A DNA stretch of 60,087 bases from an uncultured Pelagibacteraceae bacterium. Lineage in GTDB: Bacteria; Pseudomonadota; Alphaproteobacteria; Pelagibacterales; Pelagibacteraceae. Positions 9,837 through 57,975 of this stretch are shown here, in pieces. The DNA is taken from positions 1 to 60,087 of the forward strand of contig CACHMJ010000007.1 in NCBI GenBank assembly GCA_902580895.1, in the 5' to 3' direction. Numbering within the stretch: the first letter of the stretch is position 1; each line of letters opens with the position of its first letter. The translations under genes were made by a program, and so were the position numbers. The notes under the pieces were generated by a model. The model had not been told where the DNA came from. It saw only the letters and a list, made by a program, of their open reading frames with translations, and ran no database searches.

Positions 9837-10244
9837 TTATTTAAGTGTGCATTTTTTGCATAAACCAAAAAACTCAAGATTATATTTACTGTATTTCATG
9901 CCATCTTTGTCTTTGAAGTTAGCTAAGTATTTGGAAAGACCTGTACTACTTATTTCTGTTACTTTCTCACAAATCTCACAGATTGAAAACGCAGTAGCTT
10001 TAGCCACCTGACAACTTGAATTATGACATGCAATAAAGGCATTTCTACTTTCAATTTTATGAATTTTACCTATTTCAACTAACTTATCTAATGCTCGATA
10101 AACTTGCAGAGGAGCTTTAATACCTTTTTTTTGAACATTATAAAGTATTGAGTAGGCCTTAAGTGGCTGAGGTGATTTATCAATTAAATCAAAAATAATT
10201 TTCTGATTTTTGGTGAGATTATGTTCTTTGTGCATTTTATTCAT
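9837..10244 (-). CDS. zur: Zinc uptake regulator Zur (Fur family)
   Basis: 135-residue Fur-family repressor. The N-terminal winged helix contains KAPLQVYRALDKLVEIGKIH. The dimerisation domain has HNSSCQVAKATAFSICEICE and ends with a CKKC pair; together with CEIC these form the structural zinc site of the family. It lies 15 bases after znuB and in the znu cluster, which makes Zur far more likely than Fur. A second Met at residue 4 is an equally possible start. The expected target site is the palindrome at 11849-11863. Confidence 0.88.
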   Translation of the reverse strand: MNKMHKEHNLTKNQKIIFDLIDKSPQPLKAYSILYNVQKKGIKAPLQVYRALDKLVEIGKIHKIESRNAFIACHNSSCQVAKATAFSICEICEKVTEISSTGLSKYLANFKDKDGMKYSKYNLEFFGLCKKCTLK

Positions 10245-10259
10245 TTTACTGATTCCTCA

Positions 10260-11063
10260 TTAGTTTTTCAATTTAATTGATTGTTTGATATTAAATAATG
10301 AAAGTATGAACAAAAATAATGCTGCCGTTATAATTGATGGACCTGAGGAAGTATTAAATTCCAAAGATGTAAATAATCCTAAAATTACTGACAAAAGACC
10401 TCCAATGATTGAATAGATAACCATTCTTTGTGGACTAGACGAAATATTTCTAGCCATTGCAGCTGGTATGATTAGCATTCCTGTTATCAATAACAAACCA
10501 ACCATTTTAATTGATATAGCAATAATTGCAGCCATCAATATTGTGAATATTGCTTTTGCTCTATCAGGATTTAAACCTTCTGCTTCAGCTAATTCATAGT
10601 TTACTGTGGATGCGAATAAAGGTTTCCAAATTAATTTCAAAATTAACAGAATTACTGCTCCTCCAACCCATATTATTAATAGATCATCAACTGTAACAGC
10701 TAATATATCTCCAAATAATAATCCCATAATGTCAAATCTGATAAATGTTAAGAAACCAATAACAACAAGTCCTACGGCTAAAGATGAGTGAGCTAAAAGC
10801 CCTAATAAAGCATCTCCCGGAAGATTAGTTCTTTTTTGAAGTTGTATTAATGTTAAAGCAATTAAAGATGAGATAATAAATACAGATAACGCAATATTAA
10901 ATTCCATTGTAAATGCTAATGTTACTCCCAATAAAGCCGAATGGGCTAACGTATCACCAAAATAAGATAGTCTTCTCCAAATTACAAAACAACCAAGAGG
11001 CCCTGTAACGAAAGCAACTCCAATTCCAGCCACCAATGCTCTTATAAAAAAATCGTCGAACAT
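10260..11063 (-). CDS. znuB: Zinc ABC transporter permease ZnuB
   Basis: 267-residue permease of the manganese/zinc (ABC-3) type with about eight hydrophobic segments. Family features include GPLGCFVIWRRLSYFGDTLAHSALLG near the N-terminus and ALLITGMLIIPAA-type sequence (VGLLLITGMLIIPAAMAR) in the second half. It directly follows znuC (adjacent bases) and precedes zur by 15 bases, so znuC-znuB-zur form one minus-strand operon. Confidence 0.95.
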   Translation of the reverse strand: MFDDFFIRALVAGIGVAFVTGPLGCFVIWRRLSYFGDTLAHSALLGVTLAFTMEFNIALSVFIISSLIALTLIQLQKRTNLPGDALLGLLAHSSLAVGLVVIGFLTFIRFDIMGLLFGDILAVTVDDLLIIWVGGAVILLILKLIWKPLFASTVNYELAEAEGLNPDRAKAIFTILMAAIIAISIKMVGLLLITGMLIIPAAMARNISSSPQRMVIYSIIGGLLSVILGLFTSLEFNTSSGPSIITAALFLFILSLFNIKQSIKLKN

Positions 11064-11810
11064 TTAATTTTTCTTAATTTTACCCTCATCAGTATGAATA
11101 TGATCATGTCTATGTTCATATCTTGATAATATCTGTGAAGCTTGTTCACCAAACAAAGCTTTATATTCATTATTTTTTGCGACATCCATGGGTGTCCCTG
11201 AGCAGCATACATGACCATTTAGGCAAACAACGTGGTCTGTAGCACTCATTACAGTATGCAAATCATGAGAAATTAATAAGATACCACAATTCAATTCATC
11301 GGAAATTTTCTTTATAAGTTCATATAAAGCTATTTCACCTGTAAAATCTACACCTTGAACTGGCTCATCAAGAACTAACAAATCTGGTTTTTTTGAAATA
11401 GCTCTTGCTAGCAATACTCTTTGAAATTCACCACCCGATAAATCACCTAAGTTTTTATCTTTTAAATGAATAACGCCAGTTAATGATAGTGCCTCATCAA
11501 TTATTTCATTTTTTAAACTTTCAGTTAATACCATAAAATCATTGACCCTAAGTGGTAAAGTCCAATCAATTGAAATTTTTTGGGGAACATAACCAATTTT
11601 ATTTGTGTATTTTTCTACTTCTCCCTCAATTTTTTTATAAATTCCTAAAGCAATTTTAGCCGTTGTACTTTTACCTGATCCATTAGGTCCTATTAAAGTA
11701 ACTATTTTACCTTTTTCAACTTGAAGGGAAACGCCTTGAACGAGCCATTTATCGTTTATTTTAAAACCAGCGTCTTTTAATTTGACCAATATATTTTGAT
11801 TAGCATTCAT
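11064..11810 (-). CDS. znuC: Zinc ABC transporter ATP-binding protein ZnuC
   Basis: 248-residue ATPase with Walker A GPNGSGKSTTAK, signature LSGGEFQRVLLARA, Walker B LLVLDEPVQGVD and H-loop LLISHDLH. The C-terminus is His-rich (RYEHRHDHIHTDEG), common in zinc transporter ATPases. It starts 70 bases from the divergent znuA, with the Zur box in between, so one repressor site can control both directions. Confidence 0.95.
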   Translation of the reverse strand: MNANQNILVKLKDAGFKINDKWLVQGVSLQVEKGKIVTLIGPNGSGKSTTAKIALGIYKKIEGEVEKYTNKIGYVPQKISIDWTLPLRVNDFMVLTESLKNEIIDEALSLTGVIHLKDKNLGDLSGGEFQRVLLARAISKKPDLLVLDEPVQGVDFTGEIALYELIKKISDELNCGILLISHDLHTVMSATDHVVCLNGHVCCSGTPMDVAKNNEYKALFGEQASQILSRYEHRHDHIHTDEGKIKKN

Positions 11811-11848
11811 TATATCACTTGACTTATAAACGTTATATTATTACATAG

Positions 11849-11863
11849 TGTTATATTATAACA
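11849..11863. promoter_or_regulatory. Zur box between znuC and znuA
   Basis: TGTTATATTATAACA is a perfect 7-1-7 palindrome and matches the core of the known Zur consensus TGTTATANTATAACA. A weaker relative (CGTTATATTATTACA) lies next to it at 11831-11845. The site is in the 70-base divergent spacer of znuCB-zur and znuA. Confidence 0.85.
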
Positions 11864-11880
11864 ATTAAAAAAATTAAACT

Positions 11881-12945
11881 ATGAAAACTATTAAAAAAAT
11901 CCCATTATTAATATCACTTTTATCATTCCTAATAATTTTTTCACCTGTTAATGCTGAAGTTAAGGTAGTAGCATCAATAAAACCAATTCATTCACTCGCA
12001 AGCTATTTGATGGACGGTATTGGTAAACCAGATTTAATAGTTGATGGCTACGCATCACCTCATGGATTTGCACTTAAACCATCGCATGCAAAAATGATCC
12101 AAAATGCAGATATTATTTTTTGGGTAGGTGAAGACATAGAAAGTTTTTTAGAAAAACCATTAAAATCTATTGCAAAAAAAGCTGAAAAAATTGAATTAAT
12201 GGAAATTAAAGGGATAACCAAACTTAAGTTTAGAGAAAGAAATATTTTTGAAGGTCATGACGATCACGGTCATAAAGAGGATGATCATGATGATCATGCT
12301 AAAAAAGAAGACGATCATGATGACCACGATCATGATAAAGAAGAGAAAGAACATGGTCATGACGAACATGATCATGACAAAGAAGGTCATAAAGAAGACG
12401 ACCATGATGATCACGGCCATGGACATGAAGGACATGCTCATGGTGAGTACGATCCGCACATTTGGTTAGATCCAATGAATGCAAAAGTTATTTTAAGCGA
12501 AATGGCAGAGCACTTGATTGAGAATGATCCAAAAAATACTGCCAAATATAAAGAAAATTTAAAAAAAGCACATAAAGATTTAGATAAGTTAACTAAGAAA
12601 GTAAAATCTGAATTAAATAAAGATTTTAAATCAATAGTATTTCATGATGCGTATCAATATTTTGAAGAGAGATTTGGTGTTAATATTTTAGGCGCATTTA
12701 CGGTAAATACAGATGTTATGCCCGGTGCTGAGCAATTGGCTGAAATTAGAGAAGTAATTGAGCATGATAAAGTAAGCTGTATATTTTCAGAGCCACAGTT
12801 TAACCCTGATATTATTAAGGCTGTAGCAAAAGATACTAACGTTGCAACAGGCGTAATTGATCCATTAGGGGCAACACTTAACCCTGGCAAAGATCTATAC
12901 TTCGATTTAATTGGCAATATGTCTAAATCTTTTAAAGGCTGTTAA
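11881..12945 (+). CDS. znuA: Zinc ABC transporter substrate-binding protein ZnuA
   Basis: 354-residue periplasmic zinc-binding protein. A signal peptide is clear (MKTIKKIPLLISLLSFLIIF, cleavage near VNA-EVK). Zinc ligands are expected at His in YASPHGFALKPSHA, DPHIWLDP and FHDAYQYFEE. Between them, residues about 124-192, is an unusually long loop of His, Asp, Glu and Lys repeats (HDDHGHKEDDHDDH and similar), typical of ZnuA but large here; such loops are thought to gather or sense zinc. It faces znuC across the Zur box. Confidence 0.95.
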   Translation: MKTIKKIPLLISLLSFLIIFSPVNAEVKVVASIKPIHSLASYLMDGIGKPDLIVDGYASPHGFALKPSHAKMIQNADIIFWVGEDIESFLEKPLKSIAKKAEKIELMEIKGITKLKFRERNIFEGHDDHGHKEDDHDDHAKKEDDHDDHDHDKEEKEHGHDEHDHDKEGHKEDDHDDHGHGHEGHAHGEYDPHIWLDPMNAKVILSEMAEHLIENDPKNTAKYKENLKKAHKDLDKLTKKVKSELNKDFKSIVFHDAYQYFEERFGVNILGAFTVNTDVMPGAEQLAEIREVIEHDKVSCIFSEPQFNPDIIKAVAKDTNVATGVIDPLGATLNPGKDLYFDLIGNMSKSFKGC

Positions 12946-26546: not shown

Positions 26547-29402
26547 TTAATTTAAAAGTTGTCTTAAAAATTTTCCAGTATAACTCTCATTAATTTTACA
26601 AATTTCCTCTGGCTTTCCTTCTGCGATAATTTTTCCACCTTTAACACCACCTTCAGGTCCCATATCAACAATATAATCTGCTGTTTTTATAACATCTAAA
26701 TTATGTTCAATTACAACAACAGTATTCCCTAAAGCTACAAATGTATGGAGAATTTCAAGTAATTTTTTTATATCATGTTGATGTAAACCAGTAGTTGGTT
26801 CATCTAGTATATACATTGTTCTACCTGTAGATCTTTTTGATAATTCTTTTGCTAATTTGATTCTTTGAGCTTCACCACCTGATAAAGTTGTAGCTTGTTG
26901 GCCGATTTTTATATACCCTAAACCAACTTTCTTTAGTGTGAGTAATTTTGTTTTAATATTAGATATATTTTCAAAGTATTCGCACCCCTCATCAACAGTC
27001 ATATTTAAAACATCAGCAATACTCTTGTCTTTAAATTTAATTTCTAAGGTTTCTCTATTGTATCTAGTGCCTTTGCATTCATCACATTGTATATAAACAT
27101 CTGGCAGAAAGTGCATTTCGTAAGTTATCACTCCATCACCCTCACATGCTTCACATCTACCACCTTTAACATTAAATGAAAATCTACCAGGCTTATAACC
27201 TCTAGACTTTGACTCAGGTAAACCTGTGAACCAGTCCCTAATAGGACCAAACGCGCCTGTATAAGTAGCAGGATTAGATCTTGGAGTTCTTCCAATAGGT
27301 GATTGATCAATATCAATGATTTTATCAATCAACTCTGTTCCTTTAAAACCTTTAAATGGCTTTGGAATTTTTCTAGACTTATTATTGTTTAATGTAAGAT
27401 TTAAAGCATTGTAAAGCGTCTGCAATACAAGAGTAGATTTTCCGCTACCTGATACTCCTGTTACACAAGTTAAACTTCCTAATGGAATTTTTAAGTTAAC
27501 ATTATTAAGATTGTTTCCAGTTGCACCAGTAATTTCTAAAAATCTACCATTCTTGGCCAACCTTCTTTTTGAGGGCACATTTATTTTTAATTTGTTTGAT
27601 AGATATTTTCCAGTAATACTATTTTGATTTTGACTTATTTCTTTAATTGAACCTGCTGCAACAACTTCACCACCTTTGTTACCGGCTTCTGGCCCAAGAT
27701 CAATTATATGATCTGCATTCTCCATTGTTTCAGTATCATGTTCAACTACTATAACTGTATTGCCTAAATCTCTTAATCTTTTTAAGGCATTAATAAGCTT
27801 TACATTATCTTTTTGATGAAGACCTATTGATGGTTCGTCTAAAACATATAAAACTCCAGTTAAACCAGAACCGATCTGTGATGCTAATCTTATTCTTTGT
27901 GCTTCACCACCAGATAAAGTTCCAGACTCTCTTGAAAGAGTAAGATAATCAAGACCAACATTGAGTAAAAAATTTAATCTTTCGTTAATTTCTTTTAAAA
28001 TATGTTCAGCAATTTTAACTTGTCTTTTGTCTAAATTATTTTTTAAATTATCAAACCATATTGCAGCATCAGAAATTGATTTTTCTGTAACTTCACTAAT
28101 ATGAAGACCATCTATTTTTACGCATAATGCTTCATCTTTTAACCTATGACCATTGCATCTTTCACATTTAGTATCTGATTGATATTGAGCAATTTCCTCT
28201 CTTTTCCAGTCACTATCTGTCTCTAGGTATCTCCTTTCTAGGTTATTTATTACACCTTCAAAGGTTTTTTTATGTGAATATTTTTCATAACCATCATCAT
28301 ATGTAAATTTTATTTCCTCATCATCAGATCCATAAAGAATAATATCTTTTATTTTTTTTGGTAATTTTGACCATTTTTCCTCTAGCGAGAATCCATAATG
28401 TTTAGCAAGAGAGCTTAATGTCTGAGCATAATACAATGTTGTTGTTTTTGCCCATGGTTCAATTGCGCCATCAACTATACTTTTTTTCTCATTTGGTATA
28501 ACTAAATTTGGATCAACATTTAGTTTTATTCCAATGCCTTCACATTCTTCACAAGCTCCAAACGGACTATTGAAAGAAAATAATCTTGGTTCAATTTCTT
28601 CTATGGTAAATCCACTTTCAGGACATGCAAATTTGGTTGAAAAAATCAATTTTTCTAATTTTCTAAATTTTTTTGGTAAAGTTTCATCCTCATATTCAAC
28701 AAATAAAAGACCATTAGCTAGTTGTATTGAAGTTTCTATACCTTCAGCGAGACGATTTCCTAAAGATGAATTGAGGACTATTCTGTCGACAAGTATTGAT
28801 AAATCATGTTTAACTTTCTTATTAAGTTCTGGCACTTTTTCAATATCATATAAAACATTATCAATTTTAATTTTTCTAAAACCTCTTTTTTTATAATTTA
28901 AAATCTCTTTTTTATATTCACCTTTCCTCCCTCTAACTACAGGAGCATAAAGATAGATAGTTGATTTTTTTGGTAATCTCTTAATCTTATCTACTATTTG
29001 ACTTATTGTTTGTGACTCGATTGGTTTACCAGTAAAAGGTGAATAGGGAATACCAGCCCTAGCATATAATACCCTCATATAATCATAAATTTCAGTAACA
29101 GTTGCAACTGTAGATCTCGGATTTTTTGATGTATTTTTTTGCTCGATTGATATCGCAGGACTTAAACCCTCTATAAGATCTACATTTGGCTTTTTCATTT
29201 TATCTAAAAATTGTCTTGCATATGCCGATAAACTCTCGACATATCTTCTCTGACCTTCAGCATAAATTGTATCAAACGCCAATGAAGATTTTCCAGACCC
29301 AGATAATCCGGTAATTACAATAAATTTATCTTTTGGAATTTCTAAAGATATATTTTTTAAATTATGTTCTTTTGCACCCTTTATAACTATCTTTTTGATC
29401 AT
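26547..29402 (-). CDS. uvrA: Excinuclease ABC subunit A
   Basis: 951 residues. Damage-recognition ATPase of nucleotide excision repair. Two ABC modules: Walker [16 protein letters not shown] and [13 protein letters not shown], signatures [12 protein letters not shown] and [12 protein letters not shown]. The C-terminal zinc finger is complete (CEACEGDG...CDECKGTR). In the first finger the second Cys is Ser (CPESGF), a change I recall as common in alphaproteobacterial UvrA. Divergent from ssb, as in many bacteria. Confidence 0.97.
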
Positions 29403-33580: not shown

Positions 33581-33594
33581 TACTCTGATTTAAA

Positions 33595-34701
33595 TTGAAA
33601 AAATTTGAATTTAAAGTTTTAAAAAAAAATAAATTTGCAAGACTAGGCTTAATTGAAACTCATAGAGGTAAAATTGAAACACCAGCTTTCATGCCTGTGG
33701 GAACTCAGGCTACAGTAAAAGCTTGTACAATAGATGATATAAAAAAAACAGGTTCACAAATTATCTTATCAAATACTTATCATTTAATGATAAGGCCAGG
33801 TGTCAAAAGAATTGAAAATGCTGGTGGACTTCACAAATTTATGAATTGTGATTTACCAATACTTACTGACTCTGGTGGCTTTCAAGTTATGTCCTTGTCA
33901 AAACTAAACAAAATAGATAAAGAAAAAGGTGCAATCTTTAATTCACATATTGATGGAAAAAAGTTTTATCTTAGTCCCGAAGAAAGTATAAAAATACAGT
34001 TAGGACTTAATTCAGATATTGTAATGGTGATGGATGAATGTCCAAAAAAAACTAATGATTATCAAACTATAGATAAATCCATGAATTTGTCTTTGTACTG
34101 GGCTGATAGATCAAAGAAAGCTTTTGGCCATAATCCACAAAAAGCTTTATTCGGTATTGTCCAAGGTGGTTTGTTTAAAGATTTACGAGAAAAATCATTA
34201 AAAGGACTTTTGAAAATTGGATTTGATGGTTATGCTTTAGGCGGTCTAGCTGTAGGAGAGACACAAGATGAAATGTTTACAGTTTTAGACAATATAAAGG
34301 AACATTTACCAAAAGATAAACCCCACTATTTAATGGGTGTTGGTACACCAAACGATATTTTGGGTGCTGTCAAAAGAGGTATTGATATGTTCGATTGTGT
34401 TTTGCCAACTAGATCAGGTAGAACCGGACTTGCTTTTACTTGGCAGGGAAGGGTAAATATTAAAAATAACAAATATCAAAATGATAATACTCCTTTAGAT
34501 CCAGAGTGTAGAAATTTAAATTTGAATAAATATTCAAAAAATTATCTGAATCACTTGTTTAATACAAATGAGATTCTTGGATCAATGATGTTGACATTAC
34601 ACAATATAAATTTCTATCAAGAATTAATGAAAGCAATTAGAGAAAATATCCAAAATGACACATTCGATACTTTTCATGATAAATACATAGATAAGTTGTA
34701 A
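33595..34701 (+). CDS. tgt: Queuine tRNA-ribosyltransferase, zinc site incomplete
   Basis: 368 residues. Exchanges guanine 34 for a queuine precursor in tRNAs with GUN anticodons. TIM-barrel motifs are intact: LTDSGGFQVMSL with the catalytic Asp, and MFDCVLPTRSGRTG. The zinc site is not: Escherichia coli ligands Cys302, Cys304, Cys307 and His333 correspond, without gaps, to Cys305, Asn307, Leu310 and His336 here (PECRNLNL ... LTLHN). The start is TTG at 33595. Follows the cyclophilin by 14 bases. Confidence 0.93.
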   Translation: MKKFEFKVLKKNKFARLGLIETHRGKIETPAFMPVGTQATVKACTIDDIKKTGSQIILSNTYHLMIRPGVKRIENAGGLHKFMNCDLPILTDSGGFQVMSLSKLNKIDKEKGAIFNSHIDGKKFYLSPEESIKIQLGLNSDIVMVMDECPKKTNDYQTIDKSMNLSLYWADRSKKAFGHNPQKALFGIVQGGLFKDLREKSLKGLLKIGFDGYALGGLAVGETQDEMFTVLDNIKEHLPKDKPHYLMGVGTPNDILGAVKRGIDMFDCVLPTRSGRTGLAFTWQGRVNIKNNKYQNDNTPLDPECRNLNLNKYSKNYLNHLFNTNEILGSMMLTLHNINFYQELMKAIRENIQNDTFDTFHDKYIDKL

Positions 34702-34780: not shown

Positions 34781-34856
<76 letters not shown>

Positions 34857-50316: not shown

Positions 50317-50763
50317 TTAATTAAGATCTTTAGCAAAAAGTATTAAATCTCTCAAGGTCTCAAATAAGTTATATAATATGAGTTCTAAATTAGGAAAAAT
50401 ATTACTTAATGGATCCTTAAATGTATCTAATATAATTATTATTGCAATAAAAGTAATTAAAGAGACAATTAAATAGCTTAAAAATTTTCCAAAAGTAAAA
50501 TTAGATTTTGGCTTGTATTTTACTAATTCTGATCCTGGTTTTATAGGTTCAATGAATTTTGATTTACTAGTATCTTCAGCTTCATATAAAAACTTTTTTT
50601 GTTTAATAGGTTTATTGATTAACGGTTTAGTTTGTTCACCAACATTTTTATTAAAAAACCACGTTTGATCACATGATCCACATTTCAATAATCTACCTTT
50701 TTCTGGAATTAGGTTTTCATCTACATCAAAATTTTTTCCGCATGATGGACACACAATTATCAT
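50317..50763 (-). CDS. MJ0042-type zinc-ribbon membrane protein
   Basis: 148 residues. The N-terminal ribbon MIIVCPSCGKNFDVDENLIP then LKCGSCDQTWFF has two CXXC pairs; one membrane helix follows (FLSYLIVSLITFIAIIIILD). Such proteins are frequent in alphaproteobacteria, function unknown. The lysine-rich linker is typical. In one operon with nhaA. Confidence 0.85.
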   Translation of the reverse strand: MIIVCPSCGKNFDVDENLIPEKGRLLKCGSCDQTWFFNKNVGEQTKPLINKPIKQKKFLYEAEDTSKSKFIEPIKPGSELVKYKPKSNFTFGKFLSYLIVSLITFIAIIIILDTFKDPLSNIFPNLELILYNLFETLRDLILFAKDLN

Positions 50764-57698: not shown

Positions 57699-57797
57699 TT
57701 TATCCCCACTATTCACAGAGAAATGAGAAAAATAATAGAATCACCTAAAAAGTGATACATTTCAAAATCAGTATTTGTTAAGTTAATTATGAATTAA
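57699..57797. other. Spacer with tandem DnaA-box-like sequences and a small hairpin
   Basis: TTATCCCCA (57700-57708) and CTATTCACA (57709-57717) abut; each is one change from the DnaA box TTATNCACA. A weak hairpin ATCAC-CTAAAAA-GTGAT lies at 57740-57756. No gene. Confidence 0.4.
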
Positions 57798-57975
57798 GGG
57801 GCAACTCTTAACTGGCCAATTGGAGAAAAGCCGAGAGGTACAATTCCAGGGGGCAGAAAGCTTCACAAAGCATCGCTGAACATGTGGAGCGGGAGGCATG
57901 GCGGTAGCGCATCAACGACGTGCCAAAACAACTGTTCTTTGCACCCTTAAAAGTGCAAGGAAACAGGGGTTTTTC
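57798..57975 (+). ncRNA. GC-rich structured RNA candidate, free RNA or leader of the alkyltransferase gene
   Basis: About 178 bases. G+C is 63 of 120 over 57841-57960 (52%), far above the surroundings. Stems found by hand: CTGG[CC]AATTG (57812-57822) with CAATTCCAG (57841-57849); GCTT-CACA-AAGC; GGCATG (57895-57900) with CGTGCC (57919-57924) around the inner hairpin GCG-GTAG-CGC; and a final 13-pair hairpin 57932-57966 followed by GGG and TTTTT. No convincing protein frame covers it. It matches none of tmRNA, SRP RNA, RNase P RNA or 5S rRNA that I can recall. The T-run end makes the plus strand the likely sense strand. Confidence 0.6.
57932..57974 (+). terminator. Terminator-like hairpin before the alkyltransferase start
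   Basis: CTGTTCTTTGCAC pairs with GTGCAAGGAAACAG (13 pairs, one bulged A) across CCTTAAAA, then GGGTTTTT. It ends 6 bases before the next ATG, and AGGGG (57965-57969) at its foot could be that gene's ribosome site, as in transcription attenuators. Confidence 0.6.

What the first reader, a model, noticed from the sequence alone, without database searches (positions are those of the whole stretch)
34507..34602. Tgt missing two of four zinc ligands
Aligned without gaps to Escherichia coli Tgt, Cys302/Cys304/Cys307/His333 become Cys305/Asn307/Leu310/His336. The sequence there (PECRNLNLNKYSKNYLNHL) is otherwise normal and the catalytic aspartates are intact, so this is not a frameshift. The enzyme may have dropped zinc, in keeping with a zinc-poor ocean and the tightly regulated znu genes here.
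Basis: partly seen in the sequence, partly recalled or inferred. Interest (0 to 1): 0.55.

Follow-up and report, generated by a model that had tools for sequence, protein, structure and literature searches.

The report
Tgt enzyme that lost its zinc site
The tRNA-editing enzyme Tgt in this SAR11 ocean bacterium, like its counterparts in other SAR11 bacteria and in several of their relatives, has lost amino acids that hold a zinc ion in textbook Tgt, yet it still looks like a working enzyme.

Summary
In the window's tgt (33595-34701 +, 368 aa, open frame) the four zinc ligands of Zymomonas mobilis Tgt align without gaps to Cys305/Asn307/Leu310/His336. It is no sequencing error: 0 of 136 Tgt loci read from the order Pelagibacterales has all four ligands, and 23 of 133 different sequences have none. 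The gene is under purifying selection, keeps catalytic, preQ1-pocket and dimer residues, and is predicted to fold like Z. mobilis Tgt (TM 0.97).

The proposed cause, zinc-poor ocean water, is not supported: the site is also lost in 46 of 46 Hyphomicrobiales sequences read and in Caulobacterales, while several Rhodobacterales and a SAR116 genome keep it. 126 of 176 other alphaproteobacterial loci and 53 of 53 other Pseudomonadota are intact. The tree needs at least 14 changes, or 8 if branches under 95% support are collapsed.

SAR11 Tgt is also short of its pathway: QueA is absent in 25 of 25 family genomes tested, and QueC and QueF gave only weak matches. Precursor salvage is likely, as already proposed in print. 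I found no report of the zinc loss.

The parts
33595..34701 (+). tgt, tRNA guanosine(34) transglycosylase, 368 aa, TTG start
   Evidence: fold match
34507..34509 (+). codon of Cys305, aligned to zinc ligand Cys318 of Z. mobilis Tgt (kept here)
34513..34515 (+). codon of Asn307, in place of zinc ligand Cys320 (lost)
34522..34524 (+). codon of Leu310, in place of zinc ligand Cys323 (lost)
   Evidence: Leu in 100% of a 99-locus group made up mostly of the genus
34600..34602 (+). codon of His336, aligned to zinc ligand His349 (kept here, Asn in 34% of that 99-locus group)
34531..34554 (+). codons of Tyr313-His320; Tyr313, Tyr317 and His320 align to Trp326, Tyr330 and His333 of the aromatic cluster in the Z. 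mobilis dimer interface
   Evidence: alignment; cluster described in PMC5395182 (passages); conservation
33868..33870 (+). codon of Asp92 (Z. mobilis Asp102, general acid/base; role recalled)
   Evidence: alignment; invariant in A2
34393..34395 (+). codon of Asp267 (Z. mobilis Asp280, nucleophile; role recalled)
   Evidence: alignment; invariant in A2
34240..34260 (+). codons of Gly216-Glu222 (GGLAVGE), substrate pocket of the preQ1 type
   Evidence: pocket meaning from PMC11570991 (passages)

Best explanation
The gene encodes an active, homodimeric, zinc-free bacterial Tgt that swaps G34 of GUN-anticodon tRNAs for a salvaged 7-deazaguanine base, most likely preQ1. Shown by sequence: the zinc site is broken in every Pelagibacterales Tgt read, while the catalytic, preQ1-pocket and dimer-interface residues are kept and the gene is under purifying selection. 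Inferred: in Z. mobilis and E. coli the metal only pins the loop that leads into the dimer-interface helix. In these alphaproteobacteria that loop is held by ordinary packing instead: at the old Cys323 position stands Leu in the window's genus, Leu, Ser or a leftover Cys in other SAR11 groups, and Ser or Ala in Caulobacterales and most Hyphomicrobiales, followed by a nearly invariant Tyr-Ser. Once the loop no longer needs metal, the remaining ligands drift. The loss happened several times in Alphaproteobacteria and is not a special answer to scarce zinc in seawater. In the family Pelagibacteraceae the enzyme works without QueA and probably without preQ1 synthesis, and depends on a QPTR (YhhQ-type) importer, so preQ1 may be the final modification.
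For: Ligands: 0 of 136 Pelagibacterales loci intact; of 133 different sequences, 90 keep two ligands, 20 one and 23 none. Different clades keep different leftovers (CNLH and V-x-L-N/H types in the genus, I/V/L-C-S-H in four f1 genera, SNCH in family f2), which no shared alternative site would explain. Loss elsewhere: 46 of 46 Hyphomicrobiales sequences and 50 of 176 other alphaproteobacterial loci lack the set, against 0 of 53 other Pseudomonadota. At least 14 changes on the tree, 8 with branches under 95% support collapsed. Function: pairwise dN/dS 0.038-0.048 over the gene and 0.02-0.10 over residues 300-345 against the nine relatives at 92-96% identity (13 compared). Tgt is found in 13 of 16, 51 of 53 and 100 of 105 genomes at least 90% complete. 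AF2 model pLDDT 90.9, best PDB match Z. mobilis Tgt at TM 0.97. Functional precedent in Hyphomicrobiales: Bartonella henselae bTGT partially complements an E. coli queDF tgt mutant with preQ1 (PMC11570991, passages); S. meliloti tgt, queC and queF mutants have strong symbiotic defects and a queA mutant little or none (PMC3568095, passages). Salvage: QueA 0 of 25 in f1 and 3 of 3 in f2; weak matches for QueC and QueF, of which the two checked are MnmA and FolE; QPTR family PF02592 in 27 of 28.
Against: No metal content or activity was measured for any of these proteins. The B. henselae and S. meliloti sequences themselves were not read; their lack of ligands is inferred from the order. PMC9508795 states that TGT requires zinc for activity, citing E. 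coli work of Chong 1995 (passages), so a zinc-free Tgt must differ in ways I could not pinpoint; no single compensating column stood out. AF2 does not model metals and would probably give this fold in any case; its confidence is low at residues 96-102 beside the active site. The window protein still has Cys305 and His336 and could bind a metal weakly or across the dimer. Five of 75 g1 genomes at least 90% complete, and 3 of 16, show no Tgt, which allows a decaying function. QueC matches pass the Pfam cut-off in 28 of 28 genomes and one QueF match does; I read them as paralogues after checking one of each. PMC11570991 also says that all alphaproteobacteria analysed except Bartonella had tgt, queA and queG, which does not fit QueA 0 of 25 here.
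Confidence: 0.75

Rival explanations
1. Zinc sparing: SAR11 dropped the zinc from Tgt because zinc is scarce in the open ocean.
For: The loss is complete among the Pelagibacterales loci read (0 of 136 intact), and the genome has a znuABC/Fur-family locus. UvrA in the window has CPES where a second Cys of the first zinc finger would be expected (expectation recalled).
Against: The same loss is found in 46 of 46 Hyphomicrobiales sequences and in Caulobacterales, including Caulobacter, Rhizobium, Mesorhizobium and a Brucella. Several marine-type Rhodobacterales and a SAR116 genome keep the site (habitats recalled). A Zn-ribbon protein and the second UvrA finger in the same window keep their Cys.
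Confidence: 0.12
2. Relaxed constraint: after losing the rest of the queuosine pathway, SAR11 Tgt is decaying, and the zinc site is the first casualty.
For: QueA is missing and QueC and QueF are probably missing in Pelagibacteraceae, and a few near-complete genomes lack Tgt.
Against: dN/dS is 0.038-0.048 against the nearest relatives, also low over the old zinc segment. Active-site, pocket and dimer residues are intact. Family f2 has QueA and lacks the zinc site too. Per PMC11570991, 64% of the alphaproteobacterial species analysed there encode the complete Q pathway, so loss of the site need not go with loss of the pathway.
Confidence: 0.08
3. The enzyme still binds a metal through Cys305 and His336 plus other groups, or across the dimer.
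For: The window protein keeps two of four ligands, as do 90 of 133 different Pelagibacterales sequences.
Against: In 23 of 133 none is left, and the leftover pair changes identity between clades. No other Cys lies after residue 290 in the window protein.
Confidence: 0.07

Closest known systems
Bacterial TGT of Zymomonas mobilis (PDB 1ozm, 1pud and others) and E. coli
   Same: Homology over residues 3-362 (427.9 bits to 1ozm), same predicted fold (TM 0.97), same catalytic Asp pair, GGLAVG pocket and aromatic dimer cluster.
   Different: The Cys3His zinc site is broken: two ligands lost here, up to four in other SAR11.
bTGT of Bartonella henselae and other Hyphomicrobiales (PMC11570991)
   Same: A tgt-only salvage organism with the preQ1-type pocket; the paper names Pelagibacter beside Bartonella (passages). 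All 46 Hyphomicrobiales sequences read here also lack the zinc ligands.
   Different: Leftover residues differ (mostly SCAN/SCSN types against CNLH types). The word zinc does not occur in the paper's main text. The B. henselae sequence itself was not read.
Queuine-inserting bTGT of Chlamydia trachomatis type
   Same: Organisms that keep tgt without QueA or preQ1 synthesis (described in PMC11570991).
   Different: Pocket there is GG[LS][AS]G according to the paper; here it is GGLAVG.

Membership tests
Bacterial tRNA-guanine(34) transglycosylase (TIGR00430) | Score above the equivalog cut-off | tested here: met
   474.6 bits against 306.75
Bacterial tRNA-guanine(34) transglycosylase (TIGR00430) | Catalytic Asp pair (Z. 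mobilis Asp102, Asp280) and substrate-binding Asp156/Gln203 | tested here: met
   Asp92, Asp267, Asp147, Gln190 aligned and invariant in A2; roles recalled
Bacterial tRNA-guanine(34) transglycosylase (TIGR00430) | Homodimer with aromatic interface cluster Phe92/Trp326/Tyr330/His333 | tested here: inconclusive
   Residues kept as Phe82/Tyr313/Tyr317/His320; dimerisation itself not testable here; cluster from PMC5395182 (passages)
Bacterial tRNA-guanine(34) transglycosylase (TIGR00430) | Structural zinc held by Cys3His (a usual annotation, not part of the model's cut-off) | tested here: not met
   The feature is absent in all Pelagibacterales and Hyphomicrobiales sequences read, so I do not take it as defining
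Bacterial tRNA-guanine(34) transglycosylase (TIGR00430) | Transglycosylase activity with preQ1 | not testable with these tools
   Needs biochemistry
preQ1-salvage organism (tgt + QPTR, no QueDECF, no QueA) | QPTR transporter present, QueA absent | tested here: met
   25 f1 genomes: PF02592 in 24, QueA in 0; 7 of the 25 were chosen because they showed no Tgt; own genome 82% complete
preQ1-salvage organism (tgt + QPTR, no QueDECF, no QueA) | No preQ1 synthesis (QueC, QueD, QueE, QueF) | tested here: inconclusive
   QueC and QueF gave weak matches, 18-32 bits, some over the Pfam cut-off; one of each was checked and is MnmA or FolE. QueD, QueE, QueG and QueH were not searched
Queuine-type TGT | GG[LS][AS]G pocket | tested here: not met
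   GGLAVGE

The most novel reading that the evidence does not exclude
The structural zinc that the literature calls a requirement of Tgt is dispensable. A zinc-free form arose several times in Alphaproteobacteria, probably on a loop already stable without metal, and today is the standard form in SAR11, Hyphomicrobiales and Caulobacterales. In Pelagibacteraceae this zinc-free enzyme makes preQ1-tRNA as the end product from scavenged preQ1.
Probability: 0.5. Interest if true: 0.55.

Novelty: new variant of a known kind. Interest (0 to 1): 0.42.

Why it matters
Zinc is cited as a requirement of Tgt (PMC9508795). If whole orders of Alphaproteobacteria run the enzyme without zinc, the metal is a replaceable brace rather than part of the mechanism, and the natural variants show which loops do without it. 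It also removes one zinc enzyme from the expected zinc budget of SAR11 and directs the queuosine question there towards testable preQ1 scavenging.

Tried and rejected
Sequencing error or double frameshift: rejected, because the motif is conserved across the genus and the loss across the order. Takeover by other cysteines: rejected for the order as a whole by the Cys/His inventory. A single compensating column that separates zinc-free from zinc-bearing Tgt: not found; the nearest candidates are the nearly invariant Tyr313-Ser314 and the residue at 310. Zinc-poor ocean as cause: rejected on the distribution. De novo queuosine synthesis in SAR11: judged unlikely on QueC, QueF and QueA. preQ1 riboswitch in the window: none among the five Rfam hits. 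Literature searches for queuosine with SAR11 or Pelagibacter, Pelagibacter with zinc or structural zinc, and Tgt with zinc and various partners showed no report of the zinc-ligand loss in their listings; searches returned no paper, and one search listed 15 of 534. The one paper found that discusses Pelagibacter Tgt (PMC11570991, passages) does not have the word zinc in its main text.

Partial sets: of 75, 120 and 130 genomes with a match I read 30 loci each, with overlap, plus 40 fetched regions. From the class survey (221 of 241 with a match) I read 30 loci and 80 fetched regions. The other alphaproteobacterial set of 176 is these 110 plus 66 of the 80 loci; the other 14 are SAR11. One search kept the best 80 of 588 matching stretches, itself a capped list. 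From the order of G404 (292 of 297 with a match; taken as Hyphomicrobiales from the position of its Tgt beside named Hyphomicrobiales and from the identity of its members to a Brucella Tgt, up to 83%) I read the 30 best loci, 15 further families and one small genome. From the phylum search (147 of 150 with a match) I read 53 non-alphaproteobacterial loci, 30 of them the best-scoring and so biased towards canonical forms. A few genomes were read twice, and the 133 different Pelagibacterales strings include longer and shorter readings of one gene. L199, titled Pontiellaceae, is counted among the 176. The tree uses 224 rows: rows of 330 residues or fewer, two copies of the window's own locus, near-identical rows and eight distant rows (L222-L229) were left out, the zinc columns were removed, and the loci came later and are not in it.

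Full report
Observation. The window's tgt runs from 33595 (TTG) to 34701 on the + strand, 368 codons, uninterrupted, and is the only PF01702 match in the genome. It passes the NCBIfam equivalog model for tRNA guanosine(34) transglycosylase. Aligned to Z. mobilis Tgt (PDB 1ozm) the region around the zinc site is gapless: ligands Cys318, Cys320, Cys323 and His349 become Cys305, Asn307, Leu310 and His336 (codon positions; ligand numbers recalled).

Not an error. In the 30 loci of the genus search, the window's own included, the segment reads with few exceptions C-x-[NK]-[LF]-x-LNKYSKNYLNHLFNTNEIL. Reading outwards, no locus in the order Pelagibacterales has the four ligands: 0 of 136 loci, 133 different sequences. 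The leftovers differ by clade: CNLH, CNLN, CKLH or V-x-L-[NH] in the genus; C-[IL]-L-H in g2 and g4; I/V/L-C-S-H in g5, g7, g9 and g12; S-N-C-H in the second family f2. Of the 133, 90 keep two ligands, 20 one and 23 none. If a lost Cys cannot return, the ancestor of the order had the whole site and broke it at least three times; if Cys can return, one loss suffices. I cannot decide between these.

Still a working gene. Against the nine relatives at 92-96% identity pairwise dN/dS is 0.038-0.048 for the whole gene and 0.02-0.10 for residues 300-345; four more distant ones give 0.05-0.13, with synonymous sites near saturation. Asp92, Asp147, Gln190, the GGLAVGE pocket and Asp267 are kept. The residues that match the dimer hot spot of Z. 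mobilis Tgt (Phe92, Trp326, Tyr330, His333; PMC5395182, passages) are Phe82, Tyr313, Tyr317 and His320 here, and Tyr313, Tyr317 and His320 are nearly invariant in the zinc-free groups compared. An AlphaFold2 model from 47 aligned sequences has mean pLDDT 90.9, with block means of 89 and 95 over residues 301-310 and 311-320 and a weak stretch at 96-102. It matches Z. mobilis Tgt at TM 0.97, rmsd 1.3. The model contains no metal and cannot by itself show that none is needed.

Not only SAR11, and not only the sea. Among the 80 named genome contigs the site is broken in Caulobacter segnis, Phenylobacterium, Brevundimonas, Rhizobium mongolense, Mesorhizobium helmanticense, Brucella rhizosphaerae, Aurantimonas, Hoeflea, Ponticaulis and two of three contigs titled Erythrobacter. 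It is intact in Pseudooceanicola, Loktanella, Pacificibacter, Rhodovulum, Thalassospira and a SAR116 genome. In the order that holds G404 (Hyphomicrobiales by its relatives) 46 of 46 sequences read lack it. Among the other alphaproteobacterial loci 126 of 176 keep it. Among other Pseudomonadota 53 of 53 keep it. On a FastTree of 224 sequences, zinc columns removed, the fewest changes between intact and broken are 14; collapsing branches under 80, 90, 95 and 99% support gives 13, 11, 8 and 2. Many deep branches of that tree are weak, and the count cannot tell gain from loss. This distribution does not fit ocean zinc scarcity as the cause, though habitats are recalled and were not tested formally. 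Within the window a Zn-ribbon protein (50317-50763) and the C-terminal zinc finger of UvrA are intact, while the first UvrA finger has Ser in one expected Cys place. The znuABC and Fur-family genes are present at 9837-12945.

The pathway around it. In 25 Pelagibacteraceae genomes, seven of them picked because they showed no Tgt, QueA was found in none; in 3 f2 genomes it was found in all, directly upstream of tgt. QueC and QueF profile matches were weak, about 18-32 bits; QueC passes the Pfam cut-off in 28 of 28 genomes and QueF in 1 of 28. The QueF example from the window's own genome is FolE, and a QueC example from G118 is MnmA, so I read these matches as paralogues without having checked the rest. 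The precursor transporter family PF02592 is present in 27 of 28. This agrees with PMC11570991 (passages), which already lists Pelagibacter with Bartonella as tgt-only with a preQ1-type pocket and proposes preQ1 salvage. Another sentence there, that all alphaproteobacteria analysed except Bartonella had tgt, queA and queG, does not fit the result here. The paper shows that B. henselae bTGT partially complements E. coli with preQ1, and PMC11130926 (passages) says that preQ1 was found in tRNA, suggesting it as the final modification there. Since every Hyphomicrobiales sequence read lacks the zinc ligands, that enzyme probably lacks them too, which would make it a published active zinc-free Tgt; I did not read its sequence. 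S. meliloti tgt, queC and queF mutants have strong symbiotic defects, while a queA mutant has little or none (PMC3568095, passages). Against this stands the statement that TGT requires zinc, with E. coli work by Chong and colleagues 1995 as cited in PMC9508795 (passages); I did not see the 1995 paper.

How it most likely works. Same chemistry as other bTGTs: Asp267 attacks C1' of nucleotide 34, guanine leaves, and preQ1 enters (established mechanism of the family, recalled). The zinc in other Tgts braces the loop before the dimer helix; here the loop is held without metal (inferred). Why Alphaproteobacteria lose the brace so readily is open. No compensating column was found that all zinc-free groups share and zinc-bearing ones lack.

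Verdict. A real variant of a known enzyme, present in every SAR11 Tgt read and unremarked as far as the listed searches show. The oceanic explanation is not supported. The salvage context was already in print.

Noticed in passing
33589-33597: The window's subclade has lost the ATG start of tgt used by most genus relatives and has a TTG two codons downstream instead.
   Followed up: partly
26547-29402 (-): UvrA keeps the C-terminal zinc finger (C750, C753, C773, C776), but the first finger reads CPES...CEEC, with Ser where a Cys is expected (expectation recalled).
   Followed up: no
57787-57926 (+): IMES-2 RNA motif, 142.6 bits; recalled as a marine-metagenome RNA family of unknown function.
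   Followed up: no
genomes G039, G309, G310, G313, G338: Five g1 genomes at 94-95% completeness show no Tgt; four of the five still carry the QPTR transporter. Gap or true loss not resolved.
   Followed up: partly
L218, L219 (genomes G477, G360): A small-genome alphaproteobacterial family has two PF01702 matches per genome; the Tgt read from each has an intact zinc site but aligns GGVWLNV at the pocket, unlike the other sequences in the alignment.
   Followed up: no
L383 (genome G726): The Tgt of this small genome (family code f163) reads LDQC where the window protein and Z. mobilis have the D-E-C pocket triplet.
   Followed up: no
34781-34856 (+): tRNA-Lys (TTT) directly downstream of tgt.
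   Followed up: no
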